A model generated the notes under the pieces. It did not search any database and was not told where the DNA came from. It saw only the letters and a list, made by a program, of their open reading frames with translations. DNA of 64,000 nucleotides from a bacterium (GTDB lineage Bacteria > Hinthialibacterota > Hinthialibacteria > Hinthialibacterales > Hinthialibacteraceae). Below are positions 1-7,881 of the stretch, piece by piece (position 1 is the first letter of the stretch; every line of letters starts with the position of its first letter). The stretch spans positions 62,001 through 126,000 of the forward strand of contig WGLV01000032.1 in assembly GCA_016125385.1 (NCBI GenBank), in the 5' to 3' direction. A program made the position numbers and the translations under genes.

Positions 1-1061
1 GGATTCTTGATGATGACTTTTCCCTTGCGGTTGGCGAACTCATGATTGCGGCCCCAGCAGTAGATAATCACGCCCAGCGCTTTCAAGCCATCCGGTTTGT
101 ATTTCTCGCCGTGTTTGATGATGCGCTCCAACACCTGGCGGGTAATGTCTGAATTCAGCTCCATGTTCTTTTGCTGCACGGCGCGGATCAGGTATTGGTT
201 GAAAAACATATCGAGATTGCGCAGCGCGCTGTCGTACAGTTGATCGGCGAGTTTGGAGACGTTATTCGTGGTGAGCAGCCGGTTGACTTTGCGGCCCAGC
301 CGCTGTTTCACCTCGTTCTCCACCGCGAATGAATATGAAAAGCCGATATTCCGCGCCACCGATACGCTGGAGGCGTTGGCCGATTGTTGCAGGCTTTCCG
401 CCAGGCCCAGCATGGTACGCGTTTCCTCGTCCATCTGTTTCAGGTTGGGCAGCGTTTCCGCCAGCGCGTCGAGGTAAATCGTGGGGTCTTCCGGCGCGGT
501 GGCGCCGTCGCCGGGGTGAGATGAATCCAGCAGGTCGATCATTTCATAGACGGCGCTTTTAAAGCCCGCGTCCAGATCCTGACTTTGCAGTTGCGCCTGC
601 AACTCCTGATTGAGGGCGTCGTCGGCGGGTTGGCCCGACTGGAGACACTCGTCGACCCGCTCGCGCAGGCGCCGCATCCGTTCGATTTGTTCGAAGATCG
701 CGTCGAGGCCTTTATACAGCGTATCGATTTCCGCGTCGATGCGCGACTTGCTTAATACGAACATGGCGCCGTACTGGCGCGCCAGCGCCCCTTCGTCAAA
801 CGTCCCCACCGCCGAGATCATGATGATGGGCAGGCTGGGATGAAGCCGTTTAACCTCACGGATCAGGTGCAGGCCCTCGTCGTGGCTGCGCATGTCGAGA
901 TCGGTTATGACCACGTGCGGGTCCGACTGATGAATCGTCTCCAGCCCCTTGTCGGCGTTTTCCGCCTCCAGCACCTGGTACCCCGCCAGCGTCAGATTGC
1001 GTTTGACCGCGTTCCGGTACTGCGCGTTATCGTCGACCAGTAACAAGCGTTTATCCGCCAT
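1..1061 (-). CDS. Response regulator with N-terminal receiver domain (3' end outside window)
   Basis: This gene is absent from the ORF track because it runs off the left edge. Read on the minus strand from an ATG at 1061, preceded by a GGGAG ribosome site, it gives at least 353 residues. Residues 1-120 form a CheY-like receiver: the acidic pair is D10/D11 (LLVDDN), the phospho-acceptor is D54 (TDLDM), a Ser follows in MISA, and a Lys lies in VLSKS. The rest is mostly helical with no DNA-binding or GGDEF motif that I can recognise, so the output is unknown; the final part may lie outside the window. It starts 21 bp after the Gfo/Idh gene upstream and may be co-transcribed with it. The receiver call is firm; the function of the C-terminal part is not assigned. 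Confidence 0.85.
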   Translation of the reverse strand, partial: MADKRLLLVDDNAQYRNAVKRNLTLAGYQVLEAENADKGLETIHQSDPHVVITDLDMRSHDEGLHLIREVKRLHPSLPIIMISAVGTFDEGALARQYGAMFVLSKSRIDAEIDTLYKGLDAIFEQIERMRRLRERVDECLQSGQPADDALNQELQAQLQSQDLDAGFKSAVYEMIDLLDSSHPGDGATAPEDPTIYLDALAETLPNLKQMDEETRTMLGLAESLQQSANASSVSVARNIGFSYSFAVENEVKQRLGRKVNRLLTTNNVSKLADQLYDSALRNLDMFFNQYLIRAVQQKNMELNSDITRQVLERIIKHGEKYKPDGLKALGVIIYCWGRNHEFANRKGKVIIKN

Positions 1062-1082
1062 GATTCTCCCGTAAGTTTCAGA

Positions 1083-2078
1083 TCAGGCCAGCGGCAGGGC
1101 GGTTGGCTGGCCCGTTTCCGCCGACCGGTAGGCGCCCAGCGCGGCTTCCAGCGCCTTCAAGCCGTCGTTGCCGGTGATGGGAGACGGGGTCTTTCCCTCA
1201 ACGACGTTCAGAAATGATTGAATCAGTCCAAAGTCGATGTCGTCTCCCCAGTACGTCCATTCCGCCTTGACGGCGTCATTGTTATACACGTCGTATTTCT
1301 GATTGAAGGCGTCGACCGTGATCGAGCCTTTTTCTCCGACGATTTCCAGAGTCACGTCGCCCCAGGTGGGGAACGATTTGTTGGGGCGCGACCACGAAGT
1401 GTCGAGCGTGGCGAATATCCCCCCCTCGAATTCCAGTGACAGCGTCCCCGCGTCTTCCACGCTCAGCTCGGGATAAAACTGCGTACCCATTTCGGCGTAC
1501 ACCGAGGTGACCTCGCGTCCGAGAATCCAGCGCCACACGTCCAGCACGTGAACCGTGTGGTCGATCACCGCGCCGCCGCCTGAAAGCGCCTTGTCGACGA
1601 ACCATCCGCCCGGCATGGTTCCGCGGTTCGTTCCCTTCATACCGATGATCTCGCCCAGCTTGCCGTCCTGAATCAACTGCTTCGCCCTGAAAACCGGGGT
1701 GCTGAACCGGCAGGGAAACGCGATCATCAGCGCCGCGCCCGCTTTCTCGCAGGCGTCGATCATGATCCGCGCGTCAGTCAGATTGGTTGAGATCGGTTTC
1801 TCGCAGAGGATGGTCTTTTTCGCCTCAGCGGCTTGCAGGACGAAATCCTTGTGTTTCGAATTCTCGCTGCAGATCACCACGCCGTCGCTCGCGTCGAGCA
1901 GCCCGCCGCACGTTTCGATGAATGAAATGCCCAGTTGCGAGGCGATCTCGCGCCCCCGGGCTGGGTCGTCGTCATACAGACCCGAGATCTCGCATCGGCC
2001 GGCGAGTTTCTTCAGTTGAGCCGCGTAACTGTGCGCGTGCAGATGGGCGAATGAGATCAGTCCGATTCGGGTTGTCAT
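1083..2078 (-). CDS. Gfo/Idh/MocA family oxidoreductase
   Basis: NAD(P)-dependent sugar or inositol-type dehydrogenase of 331 residues, the usual family length. The N-terminal Rossmann region starts with RIGLISFAHLHAHSY, an atypical glycine-poor nucleotide loop. The catalytic motif CEKP is intact with Lys at residue 94, and the substrate-side segment GGAVIDHTVHVLDVW supplies the usual His and Asp. The substrate cannot be read from sequence. It lies 23 bp downstream of a second Gfo/Idh gene and 21 bp upstream of the response regulator, so the three probably form one transcript. AAGGA lies about 10 bp before the ATG. Members of this family in polysaccharide degraders often act on keto-sugars or sugar acids; that role is only an inference here. 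Confidence 0.9.
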   Translation of the reverse strand: MTTRIGLISFAHLHAHSYAAQLKKLAGRCEISGLYDDDPARGREIASQLGISFIETCGGLLDASDGVVICSENSKHKDFVLQAAEAKKTILCEKPISTNLTDARIMIDACEKAGAALMIAFPCRFSTPVFRAKQLIQDGKLGEIIGMKGTNRGTMPGGWFVDKALSGGGAVIDHTVHVLDVWRWILGREVTSVYAEMGTQFYPELSVEDAGTLSLEFEGGIFATLDTSWSRPNKSFPTWGDVTLEIVGEKGSITVDAFNQKYDVYNNDAVKAEWTYWGDDIDFGLIQSFLNVVEGKTPSPITGNDGLKALEAALGAYRSAETGQPTALPLA

Positions 2079-2101: not shown

Positions 2102-3091
2102 TTACGCGGCCGCGCCGGTCTGAACGGCCTGGTTCAGTTCCATCGATTTCGCGGCGGCTTCCACCAGCGCGAGCGCTTCCAGCGCCTCTTCGGCGGGAGC
2201 GGGGTTATCGCCCTCGCCTTTTACGGCGGCGAGAAATTTTTCCATCATCAGAAAATGCGCCGGTTTGATGATCGGGCTTTCTGAAAAATAACTGCGTCCG
2301 TTGCTGTTGAAGTCGATCAGTGAGATCTGCAGCGACACCGCGCCCAGATTGTCATACCGGATCAGGCCCTTGTCTCCCGCGAACTCGGCGTCCAGACAGA
2401 ACTGGCCGTAATGACACCATGACGTTTCAACATGGGCGATCGCCCCGCTTTTCATCCGCAGCACGGCCAGCGCGTAGTCGAGCCGGTCCAGTTCGCGGCG
2501 TCCGTACAGCCCCCGGCAGTAGATCCGTTCCACCGGGCCGAAAGTCCACAGCAGGTAATCGAGTTCGTGAATCATCCCGTCGAGAATCGCGCCCCCGCTG
2601 GCGGCGATGTTGGCGTACCACCCCCGGGGGTGCGGCGTGCGCCGTGACAGGCGGATCACGCCCGGCGTTCCGATGGCGCCCCCCTGAACGCGCGCCCGCA
2701 TGCCTTCATATTCCGAATAGCATCGCAGGGTGTGCCCAACCGTCATGACCACGCCGCTCTGCCTGGCGGCTTCGACGGCTTCCCGTCCATCCTTGAGAGT
2801 TCGCGCCACCGGGGTCTCGAGGTAAACGTGTTTTCCGGCTTGCGCGGCGTTACGCGCCTGAAAGGCGTGAAAGGGAGTCGGACTGGCGATGACCACTACG
2901 TCGATGTCGTCGCGTTCGATCAACGCCTGCGATTCGGTCAGCGCGTCGGCTTTGTATGCGTCCGCCACCGCCTTGGCGTTCGCGGGGTGAGAGTCCGCCA
3001 CCGCGGCGAGTTTCACGCCGGGCAGATGCCTGAAGGTTTCCGCGTGCGCGCGGCCCACGTTTCCCGCGCCGATCAATCCGATGCGTATCAT
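2102..3091 (-). CDS. Gfo/Idh/MocA family oxidoreductase with altered EKP motif
   Basis: This 329-residue paralogue of the neighbouring dehydrogenase has a standard Rossmann start (RIGLIGAGNVGRAHA) and the substrate-side GGAILDGMIHELDYLLW segment with His and Asp. The usual EKP motif reads ETP: Thr at residue 93 (codon at 2813-2815) replaces the Lys normally used in catalysis and cofactor contact. It may therefore be inactive, use another general acid, or work with its partner. An AAGGAG site lies 8 bp before the ATG. It is the first gene of the 3-gene minus-strand group and is separated from argS upstream by about 120 bp that hold no clear terminator. Family assignment is secure; activity is uncertain. 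Confidence 0.88.
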   Translation of the reverse strand: MIRIGLIGAGNVGRAHAETFRHLPGVKLAAVADSHPANAKAVADAYKADALTESQALIERDDIDVVVIASPTPFHAFQARNAAQAGKHVYLETPVARTLKDGREAVEAARQSGVVMTVGHTLRCYSEYEGMRARVQGGAIGTPGVIRLSRRTPHPRGWYANIAASGGAILDGMIHELDYLLWTFGPVERIYCRGLYGRRELDRLDYALAVLRMKSGAIAHVETSWCHYGQFCLDAEFAGDKGLIRYDNLGAVSLQISLIDFNSNGRSYFSESPIIKPAHFLMMEKFLAAVKGEGDNPAPAEEALEALALVEAAAKSMELNQAVQTGAAA

Positions 3092-3212: not shown

Positions 3213-4874
3213 CTACATGCGCTCCGGCGCGTCGACTTTCAACAGCGACAGCCCGTTGCGCATCACCCGCTGAACGCCCAACACCAGCTTCATCCGCGCG
3301 CGGCTGCCTTCCGGGTCGTCCTGATCGAGTACGCGCTGCGCCTGGTAATAGCCATGAAACGTCTTCGCCAGGTCTTCGAGATAGGCGGGTACGAGGTGCG
3401 CTTCCAGCCGTTCCGCCGCGTCCATCACCACGTTGGGGTAAAAGAACAACTTCAACAGCAGTTCGCGTTCGCGTTCTCCCCGAAGCGGCGCGGGGTCGAT
3501 CCCATCGAGGTTGGGCGCGCGGTCGATGCCGCGTTCTTCCGCTTTCTGTTCGATGCTGCATGTCCGGGCGTGAACGTATTGCAGATAATAGACCGGGTTG
3601 TCCATCGACTGCCGCTTGGCCAGGTCCCAGTCGAAGATCATTTGCGAGTTGTAACTGCGTTGCGCGAAGAAATAGCGGGTGACGTCCGCCCCCAGTTCGT
3701 CGACCATGTCGGCCAGCGTCATGAACTGCCCTTCGCGCGTCGAGAGTTTGATCTTCTCGCCGCCGCGTTCGATGCTCACCATCTGGTTCAACAGGTAATT
3801 CAGCGCGTTCAGCCGGTAGCCCAGTATCGTCAGCGCGATCTTGACCCGTTCCACCTGGCTGTGGTGGTCGTGGCCCATCACGTTGACCAGCAGGTCGAAG
3901 CCGCGCGCGTACTTCTCACGATGGTAGGCGATGTCGGGCGTTACGTAGGTCGGCTCGCCGTCGCTTTTCACCAGCACCCGGTCCTTGTCGTCGCCCTGAT
4001 CGGTGCTTTTCAGCCACAACGCCCCATCCTGTTCGTAAGTGGCGCCCTGGGCGGTTAGTTCGTCGATCGTCTGGCGCACGCTTCCGTTTTCATGCAGCGA
4101 GCGTTCGCTGAAGGTCGTGTCGAACCGCACCCGCAGCTTGCGCAGATCGTCCATGATGACCGACATCAACACGTCGGCGGCGAACTCGGTGAAGGGGCGC
4201 CATTCGCCGCTTTCTAACAGCGAATCGCCTTTCGCCGTCTTGACCGCCGCCGCGATGTAGCGGATGTAATCGCCCTTGTATCCATTTTCCGGAAGCGCTT
4301 CATCAAGACCGAATAGCTGCCAGTAGCGCGCCCGCACCGAGCGGCCCAGCATCTCCATCTGAACGCCCGCGTCGTTGTAGTAATACTCGCGCGTCACCTC
4401 GTATCCCACCGCTTCCAGCAGCGAGGCGGCCGTGTCGCCCACGATGGCCCCGCGCACGTGCCCTACGTGCAGCGGGCCGGTCGGGTTCGCGCTGACGAAC
4501 TCGACCATCGCTTTTTTGCCCGCGTACTTCGCCGAGCGCCCATACGCCGAATCCTGCTTCAGCGCCGCGCCCAGCGTGTTGAGCAGAACCTGGCTCGATA
4601 ACGAGACGTTGATGAAGCCCGGGCCGGCCGCGCTCGCCTTTTCAATAGAGGGATGACCGCTCAGCCGCATGACGATCTCACCCGCCAGTTCGCGGGGATT
4701 CCGTTTCAGCGATTTCGCCCAGTTGAACGCGGCGGTGGTGGTCAGGTCGCCGTGGCTCAGGTCGCGCGCCGGAGAAAAACCCGCCGGTTCGGCCTGATCG
4801 AAGGCGTCGCCCAGAATGTCGCGGGCGGCCTCCTGCAAAACCTGGTTCAGTTCATCAACAACGTCAAAGTACAC
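3213..4874 (-). CDS. argS: Arginyl-tRNA synthetase (class I)
   Basis: Charges tRNA-Arg with arginine in the cytoplasm. The 553-residue protein has the N-terminal additional domain, the class I signature HVGH near residue 136 in SANPTGPLHVGH, the KLSTREGQF segment that stands in for KMSKS in many ArgS proteins, and the C-terminal anticodon-binding helical domain ending LGVQRVMRNGLSLLKV. The start codon is GTG with GGAGG 9 bp upstream, inside the end of the preceding glycosidase gene: the two overlap by 11 bp, which suggests translational coupling. Pairing of a housekeeping synthetase with a glycosidase is unusual but the sequence itself looks ordinary and complete. Confidence 0.97.
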   Translation of the reverse strand: MYFDVVDELNQVLQEAARDILGDAFDQAEPAGFSPARDLSHGDLTTTAAFNWAKSLKRNPRELAGEIVMRLSGHPSIEKASAAGPGFINVSLSSQVLLNTLGAALKQDSAYGRSAKYAGKKAMVEFVSANPTGPLHVGHVRGAIVGDTAASLLEAVGYEVTREYYYNDAGVQMEMLGRSVRARYWQLFGLDEALPENGYKGDYIRYIAAAVKTAKGDSLLESGEWRPFTEFAADVLMSVIMDDLRKLRVRFDTTFSERSLHENGSVRQTIDELTAQGATYEQDGALWLKSTDQGDDKDRVLVKSDGEPTYVTPDIAYHREKYARGFDLLVNVMGHDHHSQVERVKIALTILGYRLNALNYLLNQMVSIERGGEKIKLSTREGQFMTLADMVDELGADVTRYFFAQRSYNSQMIFDWDLAKRQSMDNPVYYLQYVHARTCSIEQKAEERGIDRAPNLDGIDPAPLRGERERELLLKLFFYPNVVMDAAERLEAHLVPAYLEDLAKTFHGYYQAQRVLDQDDPEGSRARMKLVLGVQRVMRNGLSLLKVDAPERM

Positions 4875-7608
4875 GCTCGAAAACCTCCACGGTGATGGGG
4901 CCGATTACGCCGGCCGGTTCGGGTTCGGGTTGAAATCGGTTGAACGAATCGTTGGCGACGCGAAATTCGATCAGGTTGCGGCCCGGCTTGAACAAACCGG
5001 TGGTCTCTATGCGCCACGGCGCGCGCCAGCGCCGCCCGGCGAACTGTTCGTTGATATAGAGTTCAACCGCGTGCAGCACCTCGGTGAAACACGTCATGCT
5101 GCGCCGGTTGGCGTAATCCTCCGGCCAGTCGATCGTCTGCCGGTAGACGCCCACCCCGCAGAAATAGGGATACCCGGCCGTCGTCCAGCTCACGGCGCCG
5201 ATCCGGTCCCTCGGATGCGTGAGACAATCCGTTCCGTTGTATTGTTTAACGGTGAAGTCGCCCTCCAGCCACACCGGGCCGAACTGCGCCCGCGCGTCGC
5301 TCCATGTCGCCGAGCGAACCAGTTCGATCGCGTTATCGCCAATCTGAGTGAACTGGCTGATTTCCGCGCATGAGGGATCCCCCCACCGGTCGAAGAACAA
5401 TTCCTGCCCGTTCAACAGAACCAGATCGTCGTGCTCCAGCCCCATGATCTTCAACTGCAGGGGGGTGATTCGCTTGTTCAGTTTGAAAACGGTCGAATAA
5501 AAATGCTCCAGCCGGCGTTCACCCGGTTCCGTCTCGGGATCGCGCGCCTGTTCGTAATACCAGCGGAACAGGGGAGCCTGGTTGCCGTTTCGCGTAAAGA
5601 AAAAAAACGGCGCTTTAACCGCGATGGCGTCAGCGTGACTCTGCGGCGTCAGCGGAGTGGGCGCTTCATCCGATTTGTGCATCACCGCCAGCGTGGAGCC
5701 GAACGGTTGCAAGCGAATCGCGGCCGCATGGTTGCGATCTACGCTTCGTACGCAGACGCCCGTGGCTGGGTCGGCTTCGCTGATCCGTGAGTATCCCGTT
5801 TCGACCGGCGTGGAGATGACTTGCGGTTCGTCCGTCTGCGCGAACAACAGGTACAACCGCTCCGTCGCGGTCTGCACGCACCGCGCGAACAACACCGCTT
5901 TCTCTTTCATATCGGGCAGCAGCGGCTTCACCCAGTCTTTCAACGTATCCATCCAGCCATCCTGACGGATGCGTACCGTATCCAGTTCGTCCGCCAGGGG
6001 TGAAAAATACGAATCGCCGCTTTCGAGATCGCCGTTCTCGGCGGCGAGGTCGGGCGCGCGGCCCGCGAACAGAATCAGCCCGCCCTGGTCAGCCAGCCGG
6101 GTCAGTTCGATCGCGGCGCTTTTTCCAATCAGCCGCAGGGGCGGAACCAGAATCAGACTGTAGCGGCGCTGCTTTCCATCGCTGGAACGCAGCGAGTAAA
6201 AGCCCTCCTCATCCACCTCGAGGCATGACAATTGAGTCTCGTACATCCAGTCCAGAGAGTACCGTTCGGCCCGCAAGCCGAGTTCCATCTCGTACCAGGA
6301 CTGCTTGGCTTCGACCAGTTGTTGTGAACCGGCTTCGGTAAAGGGAAACCGTGCGTAATCCGTCACGCCCGCGTCGAGCATCAGGATGGAAACTTCTTCC
6401 GTGCCGTATTCAGCCAGCGCGCTCAGCCGCGCGGCGTATGATGCGACGCCGTCCATCCACGGCTGACACGGTTCATGATACGCTTCGTCTTCGCCGTGAT
6501 CGTTTTCCATTCGAGGCGCCAGCGAGGGAGCAAGATTGACTTCGCGCCGGAACCCCGCCAGAAAATCGTTATCGATAAAATAAGCCAGCCGGGCGGGCGT
6601 GTCCGAGTTGCGTTGGCTCATGTCGCCCCAAGCCGCTTCGCCTTCCATCCAGGCGTGCAGCGGCGCCGAGAGCGTGGGCGCGCCCAGTGGAACCGGCGGC
6701 GGCGCCAGAAAACACAGGTTGGCGTTTTTCCACCCGAGCGCTTCGTAGGCCTCGCGAACCGGCTGAAAGTATGAATCGCGCCATAGCGTACACATCGCCC
6801 GGCGGTACAGAATACGGTGCTTCAGTGAGTGATCGTCTTCTTCGTCAAACAGCCCGGGGATCGATTCCAGCGCGTCTTTTTTATACATCAGGGTAAACGC
6901 GTCGCTGAAATCTTCGCCCCACGGCGCGCCGGTGTAATAGAATTCCTGCCAGGCGATGCGGGGCCAGTACACGCCGTCGATGACCGTGCGCGCGTCGTGC
7001 AGCACCTCGCCCAGCGCCGAGGCGGTTTCGTGAATCAGCGCTTTGACCGCGGCGGGGTGAAACGGATTCAGCGTGTAGTCGTATTCATGCCGTTCGAACG
7101 CCCAGAAGCGCTCCACCGCCAGCGGCGTCAAACCTTCGACCCTGCCGTTGCGGTACAACTGGCTGATATCCATCGCGCGTCCGCCTTCGGTGATCCCCAG
7201 AATCAGTGGATCGTTCAGCGGTTCCGGCAGCGTCCACAACACACGTTCGCCCGATCGCACGTCGTGCCGCCCGGCGTATTCCAGCGTCTGCATGCGAAAG
7301 CCGGGCTCCGATTCCGCCAGTTGCATGGCGGTCAGACTGGTGAGGCTCAGCGGACCGCCGTGCAGCCAGACGCTCAACCCCAGTTCGCGCGCTTTGTGCG
7401 CCGCCGTAACCACGATAGAGGCCGAGTGTAACGAGCTGAGCAGCGATTGAACGCAGGCCGGCTCGATGACCACGCCGCCCCATCCCTGTTCACGGATCGC
7501 GCGCAGGTGGCGTTCGACGTCCGTCTCCCCCCAATCGGGCGCGAAAGGCCACACCGTCAAGGGTTTGACGTGTTGGGCGGGGCGTTGCAATCGAGTCAAC
7601 CAGTCCAT
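4864..7608 (-). CDS. Large GH106/GH2-like glycoside hydrolase
   Basis: A protein of 914 residues with no obvious signal peptide. The N-terminal half (PLTVWPFAPDWGETDVERHL, then EQGWGGVVIEPA) looks like a beta/alpha barrel. The C-terminal part contains two beta-sandwich stretches, the last with INEQFAGRRWRAPWRIETTG and GRNLIEFRVANDS, as in the terminal domains of GH2 and GH106 (alpha-L-rhamnosidase-like) enzymes. I cannot place catalytic acids with confidence. The track start at 7629 is a GTG without a ribosome site; ATG at 7608 has AGGA 6 bp upstream and is preferred. It overlaps argS by 11 bp. The likely role is trimming of plant or algal glycans; the GH106 label is tentative. Confidence 0.6.
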   Translation of the reverse strand: MDWLTRLQRPAQHVKPLTVWPFAPDWGETDVERHLRAIREQGWGGVVIEPACVQSLLSSLHSASIVVTAAHKARELGLSVWLHGGPLSLTSLTAMQLAESEPGFRMQTLEYAGRHDVRSGERVLWTLPEPLNDPLILGITEGGRAMDISQLYRNGRVEGLTPLAVERFWAFERHEYDYTLNPFHPAAVKALIHETASALGEVLHDARTVIDGVYWPRIAWQEFYYTGAPWGEDFSDAFTLMYKKDALESIPGLFDEEDDHSLKHRILYRRAMCTLWRDSYFQPVREAYEALGWKNANLCFLAPPPVPLGAPTLSAPLHAWMEGEAAWGDMSQRNSDTPARLAYFIDNDFLAGFRREVNLAPSLAPRMENDHGEDEAYHEPCQPWMDGVASYAARLSALAEYGTEEVSILMLDAGVTDYARFPFTEAGSQQLVEAKQSWYEMELGLRAERYSLDWMYETQLSCLEVDEEGFYSLRSSDGKQRRYSLILVPPLRLIGKSAAIELTRLADQGGLILFAGRAPDLAAENGDLESGDSYFSPLADELDTVRIRQDGWMDTLKDWVKPLLPDMKEKAVLFARCVQTATERLYLLFAQTDEPQVISTPVETGYSRISEADPATGVCVRSVDRNHAAAIRLQPFGSTLAVMHKSDEAPTPLTPQSHADAIAVKAPFFFFTRNGNQAPLFRWYYEQARDPETEPGERRLEHFYSTVFKLNKRITPLQLKIMGLEHDDLVLLNGQELFFDRWGDPSCAEISQFTQIGDNAIELVRSATWSDARAQFGPVWLEGDFTVKQYNGTDCLTHPRDRIGAVSWTTAGYPYFCGVGVYRQTIDWPEDYANRRSMTCFTEVLHAVELYINEQFAGRRWRAPWRIETTGLFKPGRNLIEFRVANDSFNRFQPEPEPAGVIGPITVEVFERVL

Positions 7609-7881
7609 GACGAGTCCTGAATTCTCCACGGATAACGGGGTGAATACCGTGTGGCGGCGGTTTGCCGTAGGGTATGGTATCAGCGCTGGCGCCGCCTCAA
7701 AAGGGAGAGATTCGCGCCGATTTCATGGCCTCCATCTTCTCCATCTCGCTAAATGAATGCGGACAACCGTCTTGAATTAGCAGGCGTGAATAAAATCGCT
7801 TCTCCGCGCCCGTTTCTTCTCATAATAATCATTGATTCCGATCAACGAATCATTCTTGTCGTCGATAATCCAAACCTCTCT

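What the first reader, a model, noticed from the sequence alone, without database searches (positions are those of the whole stretch)
2102..3091. Gfo/Idh oxidoreductase whose EKP motif is ETP
The Lys normally used in catalysis is Thr at residue 93, while the adjacent paralogue (1083-2078) keeps CEKP. The Rossmann start is intact. The pair may be a heteromer in which one member is a cofactor-binding scaffold, or the variant may have a different chemistry.
Basis: partly seen in the sequence, partly recalled or inferred. Interest (0 to 1): 0.55.

Follow-up and report, generated by a model that had tools for sequence, protein, structure and literature searches.

The report
Sugar dehydrogenase pair, one lacking lysine
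A bacterial sugar-dehydrogenase-like protein has lost the lysine its family normally uses for catalysis; its close relatives share the loss, a second lineage lost it independently, and it is inherited together with a partner protein that has its own altered cofactor-binding motif, so this is a real but untested enzyme variant.

Summary
On the minus strand, 2102-3091 encodes a 329-aa Gfo/Idh/MocA protein with ETP at residues 92-94; the GxGxxG loop, Asp171 and His175 are intact. All other Gfo/Idh proteins found in this genome (67 matches in all) keep the Lys. The codon is ACC, at least two substitutions from a Lys codon, and three other genera of the order also lack Lys (T, V, I), so it is no sequencing error. 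A second lineage in another phylum (two genomes, EAP) lost Lys independently (single origin rejected, p-AU 0.0002). Both losses are in "gene 1" of an ancient tandem pair. Both genes occur in exactly the same 18 of about 372 genomes, adjacent in 17. Best reading: gene 1 is still a cofactor-binding oxidoreductase with a Lys-independent mechanism and a changed pocket, in an obligate two-protein sugar pathway. The solved, active Gfo/Idh dehydrogenase PmdC also lacks this Lys (EIP). A heteromer or cofactor-scaffold role is possible but unproven. The family is unnamed, its substrate unknown. New variant of a known kind.

The parts
2102..3091 (-). Gene 1: Gfo/Idh/MocA protein, 329 aa, catalytic Lys replaced by Thr
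   Evidence: Pfam GFO_IDH_MocA 4e-28 and GFO_IDH_MocA_C3 1.2e-21
2813..2815 (-). Codon ACC = Thr93, position of the EKP lysine
3053..3070 (-). Intact GxGxxG cofactor loop (GAGNVG, residues 8-13)
   Evidence: G8, G13 and D33 kept by all six Lys-less proteins
2579..2581 (-). Asp171, second residue of the K-D-H triad, kept
2567..2569 (-). His175, third residue of the K-D-H triad, kept
2630..2644 (-). Clade-specific pocket loop RRTPH (R150-H154): R151, P153 and H154 invariant in the Lys-less clade and rare in Lys-bearing orthologues; the loop is shorter than theirs
1083..2078 (-). Gene 2: partner Gfo/Idh protein, 331 aa, keeps CEKP and D/H, starts 23 bp downstream of gene 1
2037..2054 (-). SFAHLH in gene 2 in place of GxGxxG; SxAHxH-type in 72 orthologues
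1797..1799 (-). Lys94 of gene 2 (CEKP), kept in 72 of 72 orthologues
3213..4874 (-). argS, conserved upstream neighbour (context)
   Evidence: Pfam tRNA-synt_1d and DALR_1; same order in G001 and G005

Best explanation
Gene 1 is a functional NAD(P)-binding Gfo/Idh oxidoreductase in which the catalytic Lys of the K-D-H triad was lost in the ancestor of this order and the active site re-tuned around the remaining Asp171/His175. It most likely still performs hydride transfer on a different or pre-activated sugar-like substrate, by a Lys-independent (His-centred) mechanism, as in the Lys-less enzyme PmdC. It works in one pathway with gene 2, from which it is almost never separated. Shown: the sequence state, its conservation, two independent losses, co-inheritance, retained cofactor loop and Asp/His, altered pocket residues. 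Inferred: that it is active, that it binds NAD(P), and that the substrate is a carbohydrate.
For: Lys absent in all four orthologues of the order at 47-64% identity. 33 of 63 positions at least 90% conserved in 66 Lys-bearing orthologues are kept in all six Lys-less proteins, including G8, G13, D33, E92, P94, R123, D171, H175 and W225. The pocket was re-tuned: V121 is lost in both Lys-less clades, G151->R is fixed in this one, and G223->S/T. PmdC (9AZO), an active NADP dehydrogenase of this fold, reads VEIP at the same place and GHT...RRT at the positions of T121, R151 and T152; its catalysis rests on histidines (PMC11489326). Sugar-catabolic context of Lys-bearing relatives: ROK regulator, solute-binding protein and sugar-type permeases, xylose-isomerase-like TIM barrel.
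Against: No activity data. In scyllo-inositol dehydrogenase each of the three triad residues was mutated to Ala and activity was lost (PMC5969746, data not shown there). The position is free to be T, V or I, and the EAP clade also lost H120 and F125, as expected under relaxed constraint. The predicted C-terminal domain is of low confidence, so the pocket could not be modelled.
Confidence: 0.5

Rival explanations
1. Obligate heteromer with divided roles: gene 1 and gene 2 form a mixed oligomer in which gene 1 supplies the canonical cofactor loop (bound or structural NAD(P)) and gene 2 the intact K-D-H triad; loss of Lys in gene 1 is tolerated because turnover occurs in the gene-2 subunit.
For: Exact co-occurrence in 18 of about 372 genomes (Fisher p 5e-31, not corrected for relatedness), adjacency in 17 of 18, and in 47 of 50 gene-1 loci of a second phylum. 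Each member lacks a different canonical element: gene 2 has SxAHxH-type residues for GxGxxG in 72 orthologues, gene 1 lost Lys twice. Lys was never lost in gene 2. A neighbouring subunit can contribute an active-site residue in this family (His318 of Pl-scyllo-IDH, PMC5969746).
Against: In most lineages gene 1 is fully canonical although gene 2 already lacks GxGxxG, so division of labour is not the ancestral need. In the family the active site lies in the crevice between the two domains (PMC9795676), so a partner's Lys could not simply reach gene 1's nicotinamide (inference). In G304 the genes lie on different contigs. Two sequential Gfo/Idh enzymes in one pathway (LgdA, LgdC) also explain co-inheritance (PMC7676230). 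No complex was modelled.
Confidence: 0.27
2. Gene 1 of this clade is a pseudoenzyme: a sugar/NAD sensor or regulator (as Gal80 is in yeast), or a binding-only protein that modulates gene 2.
For: Loss of a triad residue; position 93 drifts T/V/I; R181 lost in both clades; the EAP clade lost further pocket residues and has long branches. A response-regulator gene follows the pair in G001 and G005.
Against: Asp and His of the triad are kept in all six Lys-less proteins, with new invariant pocket residues, which points to a maintained active site. No DNA-binding domain.
Confidence: 0.15
3. Sequencing or assembly error, or a decaying gene.
For: Draft assemblies (77 contigs for G000).
Against: ACC, GTT and GCC each need at least two changes from AAA/AAG. 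The state recurs in four genera, and a second origin appears in two genomes. The ORF is intact and strongly conserved.
Confidence: 0.01

Closest known systems
Inositol 2-dehydrogenase IolG and the canonical K-D-H Gfo/Idh enzymes (e.g. TM_0414 3EZY, 4HKT)
   Same: Best sequence matches (3EZY 4e-31); same two-domain architecture, GxGxxG, Asp and His of the triad
   Different: Lys of the triad absent; scores 182 bits against the IolG cut-off of 355
PmdC / CHMS dehydrogenase (9AZO)
   Same: Natural Lys-less Gfo/Idh-fold dehydrogenase (VEIP); GHT and RRT segments match the clade-specific residues; active with NADP (PMC11489326)
   Different: PmdC uses an HHxxH core; gene 1 has no HH and keeps Asp171...His175; remote homologue (2.3e-21)
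LgdA/LgdC of levoglucosan catabolism
   Same: Two Gfo/Idh dehydrogenases with TIM-barrel isomerase-type genes and a sugar ABC transporter, as in the Paenibacillus loci of this pair (PMC7676230)
   Different: 70 bits (gene 1) and 89 bits (gene 2) against the levoglucosan-dehydrogenase cut-off of 650; not the same family
OxiC of Corynebacterium glutamicum
   Same: Natural Gfo/Idh protein with an incomplete GxGxxG and a missing triad residue (PMC9603128)
   Different: OxiC lacks the triad Asp rather than the Lys and had no inositol dehydrogenase activity; here the two defects sit in two partner proteins

Membership tests
Gfo/Idh/MocA family | Pfam Rossmann (PF01408) and C-terminal (PF22725/PF02894) domains above cut-off | tested here: met
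   99, 77.4 and 64.3 bits against 24, 27 and 22.9
Gfo/Idh/MocA family | GxGxxG cofactor loop | tested here: met
   GAGNVG in gene 1; not met in gene 2, SFAHLH
Gfo/Idh/MocA catalytic oxidoreductases | EKP lysine of the K-D-H triad | tested here: not met
   ETP; Lys also absent in three orthologues of the order
Gfo/Idh/MocA catalytic oxidoreductases | Asp and His of the triad | tested here: met
   D171 and H175 in all six Lys-less orthologues
Inositol 2-dehydrogenase IolG (TIGR04380) | Equivalog score of at least 355 bits | tested here: not met
   181.8 bits
Levoglucosan dehydrogenase (NF052479) | Equivalog score of at least 650 bits | tested here: not met
   70.2 bits
CHMS dehydrogenase (PmdC/LigC) | HHxxH catalytic core (PMC11489326) | tested here: not met
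   No HH dipeptide anywhere in the 329-aa sequence
Hetero-oligomeric Gfo/Idh enzyme | Physical complex of gene 1 and gene 2 | not testable with these tools
   Only genomic co-occurrence and adjacency are available
NAD(P)-dependent oxidoreductase | Binds NAD(P) and turns over a substrate | not testable with these tools
   needs bench work

The most novel reading that the evidence does not exclude
The pair is an obligate hetero-oligomeric dehydrogenase of a kind not described for the Gfo/Idh family: one subunit kept for the canonical dinucleotide loop, the other for the K-D-H triad but with an SxAHxH loop replacing GxGxxG, with the Lys of the first subunit dispensable and lost at least twice.
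Probability: 0.18. Interest if true: 0.65.

Novelty: new variant of a known kind. Interest (0 to 1): 0.42.

Why it matters
The EKP lysine is treated as a hallmark of a very large enzyme family that annotation pipelines assume to be active sugar dehydrogenases. A natural, twice-evolved, conserved loss of it, always in one member of a co-inherited pair whose other member always has a non-standard cofactor loop, gives a clean natural experiment: is the lysine dispensable, and do Gfo/Idh proteins work as mixed oligomers? It also marks an unnamed two-gene system, near-universal in one sampled bacterial group and present in Paenibacillus, whose substrate could be found by ordinary genetics.

Tried and rejected
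Single-protein scan of genome contigs: no hit; the 4-sequence profile worked. A third, canonical Gfo/Idh next to the pair in G005 and G008 was considered as the true catalytic partner: no match at E <= 1e-40 in the window's genome, and it occurs in G004, G006 and G007, which lack the pair, so rejected. Structure prediction of gene 1 gave a good Rossmann domain but a poor C-terminal domain (mean pLDDT 62.6), and its PDB matches (TM about 0.5) were not used for pocket arguments; gene 2 was better (78.1; TM about 0.8 to Gfo/Idh structures) but nothing beyond the fold was read from it. A single origin of Lys loss was tested and rejected. Papers describing Lys-less Gfo/Idh pairs: none found with the terms tried. 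A chimeric query carrying PmdC's consensus motif was used only to make the search print the PmdC alignment.

Full report
WHAT IS THERE. The window's minus strand carries two tandem Gfo/Idh/MocA genes downstream of argS: gene 1 (2102-3091, 329 aa) and gene 2 (1083-2078, 331 aa), 23 bp apart. Both score far above the Pfam cut-offs for the Rossmann and C-terminal domains of the family. Neither reaches any NCBIfam equivalog cut-off; the nearest for both is myo_inos_iolG, at 182 and 150 bits against 355. They are therefore family members without a named function.

THE OBSERVATION. Gene 1 reads E92-T93-P94 where the family has EKP. The Thr codon is ACC (window 2815-2813), at least two substitutions from AAA or AAG. 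The genome has 67 Gfo/Idh matches. I read the motif in them, including gene 2, and found Lys in all except gene 1 (a few neighbouring loci share a best match, and the one ambiguous case was re-read).

IT IS CONSERVED, AND HAPPENED TWICE. In the 14 genomes held for the phylum, four have a close orthologue, and none of these has Lys: G000 ETP, G001 ETP (64% identity), G005 EVP (53%), G008 EIP (47%). More distant orthologues keep EKP: G009 in the same class, G028, Paenibacillus and others. In a second phylum nearly every genome has gene 1 (57 of 68). All 50 loci read there keep Lys except two sister genomes of one family, G153 and G410, which read EAP. With position 93 masked, the tree puts the EAP pair inside the EKP clade of its phylum, next to EKP protein G407, and the ETP clade elsewhere (each 100/100 as a group within the test set). 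Holding all six Lys-less proteins in one clade is rejected (delta lnL 45, p-AU 0.0002). So Lys was lost at least twice.

THE PAIR. Gene 2 lies directly downstream of gene 1 in every relative that first turned up. Searched independently, gene 1 (E <= 1e-118, 372 genomes) and gene 2 (E <= 1e-97, 386 genomes) hit exactly the same 18 genomes, spread over 12 families, and are adjacent in 17; in G304 they lie on different contigs. Fisher's p is 5e-31, without correction for relatedness. The cut-offs lie in clear gaps: the next gene-1 and gene-2 hits are at 1e-98 and 1e-80. Within the second phylum, gene 2 was found in the fetched flank of 47 of 50 gene-1 loci.

THE PARTNER IS ODD TOO. It keeps EKP and the Asp/His pair in 72 of 72 orthologues, but the segment that should be GxGxxG reads SxAHxH (mostly SFAHMH; one SFEHMH) in all of them (here SFAHLH). 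In this genome, therefore, each member of the pair lacks a different canonical element. Because gene 2's change is older and general, while gene 1's Lys loss is young and local, the two are not a simple one-time division of labour.

WHAT THE REST OF GENE 1 SAYS. Of 63 positions at least 90% conserved in 66 Lys-bearing orthologues, 33 are kept in all six Lys-less proteins, among them the cofactor-loop residues G8 and G13, D33, E92, P94, R123, W225 and the two other triad residues D171 and H175. Three are lost in both clades (K93, V121, R181). The ETP clade has lost nine more and fixed residues of its own, including T117, R151, P153, H154, Y228 and Q230. The loop after R150 is shorter than in Lys-bearing orthologues. 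This looks like a re-tuned pocket more than decay; the EAP clade, which also lost H120 and F125, looks more relaxed.

PRECEDENT. The triad Lys-Asp-His is described for IolG (PMC9603128), and in Pl-scyllo-IDH alanine mutants of all three residues were reported inactive, data not shown (PMC5969746). Against that, PmdC (9AZO), a structurally characterised and active NADP-dependent dehydrogenase of this fold, aligns with VEIP at the same position, and its segments GHT and RRT match residues that are specific to the ETP clade. The PmdC paper attributes catalysis to histidines (PMC11489326). Lys is thus not indispensable for hydride transfer in this fold. Gene 1 is not a PmdC-type enzyme, since it has no HHxxH core.

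CONTEXT AND FUNCTION. In the window's family the order argS - gene 1 - gene 2 - response-regulator gene recurs in G001 and, with a third Gfo/Idh inserted, in G005. In Paenibacillus the pair follows a ROK-type regulator and sugar-type ABC transporter genes; the strain read in full also has a xylose-isomerase-like TIM barrel directly after it (regulator and permeases named from sequence by eye). In G142 a TIM barrel and a transporter-like gene flank it. This resembles, in layout, the levoglucosan pathway with its two Gfo/Idh enzymes LgdA and LgdC (PMC7676230), without being that family. A role in oxidation and re-reduction of a sugar or glycoside is the most likely setting (inference).

VERDICT. 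Real, conserved, and more interesting than a single odd residue because it recurs and sits in an obligate pair with a second anomaly. Mechanism is not shown. I rate a Lys-independent, still catalytic gene 1 at about 0.5, a heteromer with divided roles at 0.27, and a pseudoenzyme at 0.15.

Noticed in passing
window 1083-2078 (gene 2), residues 9-14 at 2054-2037: The partner paralogue lacks the GxGxxG dinucleotide loop and carries SxAHxH instead, near-invariant in 72 orthologues from several phyla, with EKP and D/H intact. Cofactor binding by this widespread subfamily is unexplained.
   Followed up: partly
whole genome G000: 67 Gfo/Idh matches in a 5.5-Mb genome, a large expansion; candidate counts of about 40 to 130 occur in other genomes of its phylum.
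   Followed up: no
L037:10726-11745 and L038:5710-6870: A third, canonical EKP Gfo/Idh gene sits just upstream of gene 1 in G005 and G008 but has no match at E <= 1e-40 in the window's genome; it also occurs in relatives without the pair.
   Followed up: partly
window 4864-7629 (minus): 921-aa protein next to argS with only a weak glycosyl hydrolase family 2 N-terminal-like match at its C-terminus (28.3 bits); similar-looking large ORFs stand beside argS in G001 and G005. Probably a divergent glycoside hydrolase.
   Followed up: no
L085 (G153) and L175 (G410): Second, independent Lys-less lineage (EAP) of gene 1; it has also lost H120 and F125 of the conserved GHVLRF segment.
   Followed up: yes
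window about 1-1063 (minus), L036:11520-12767, L037:6962-8269: Response-regulator gene directly downstream of gene 2 in three genera; in G001 only the receiver domain was recognised by Pfam. Possible operon partner of unknown role.
   Followed up: no
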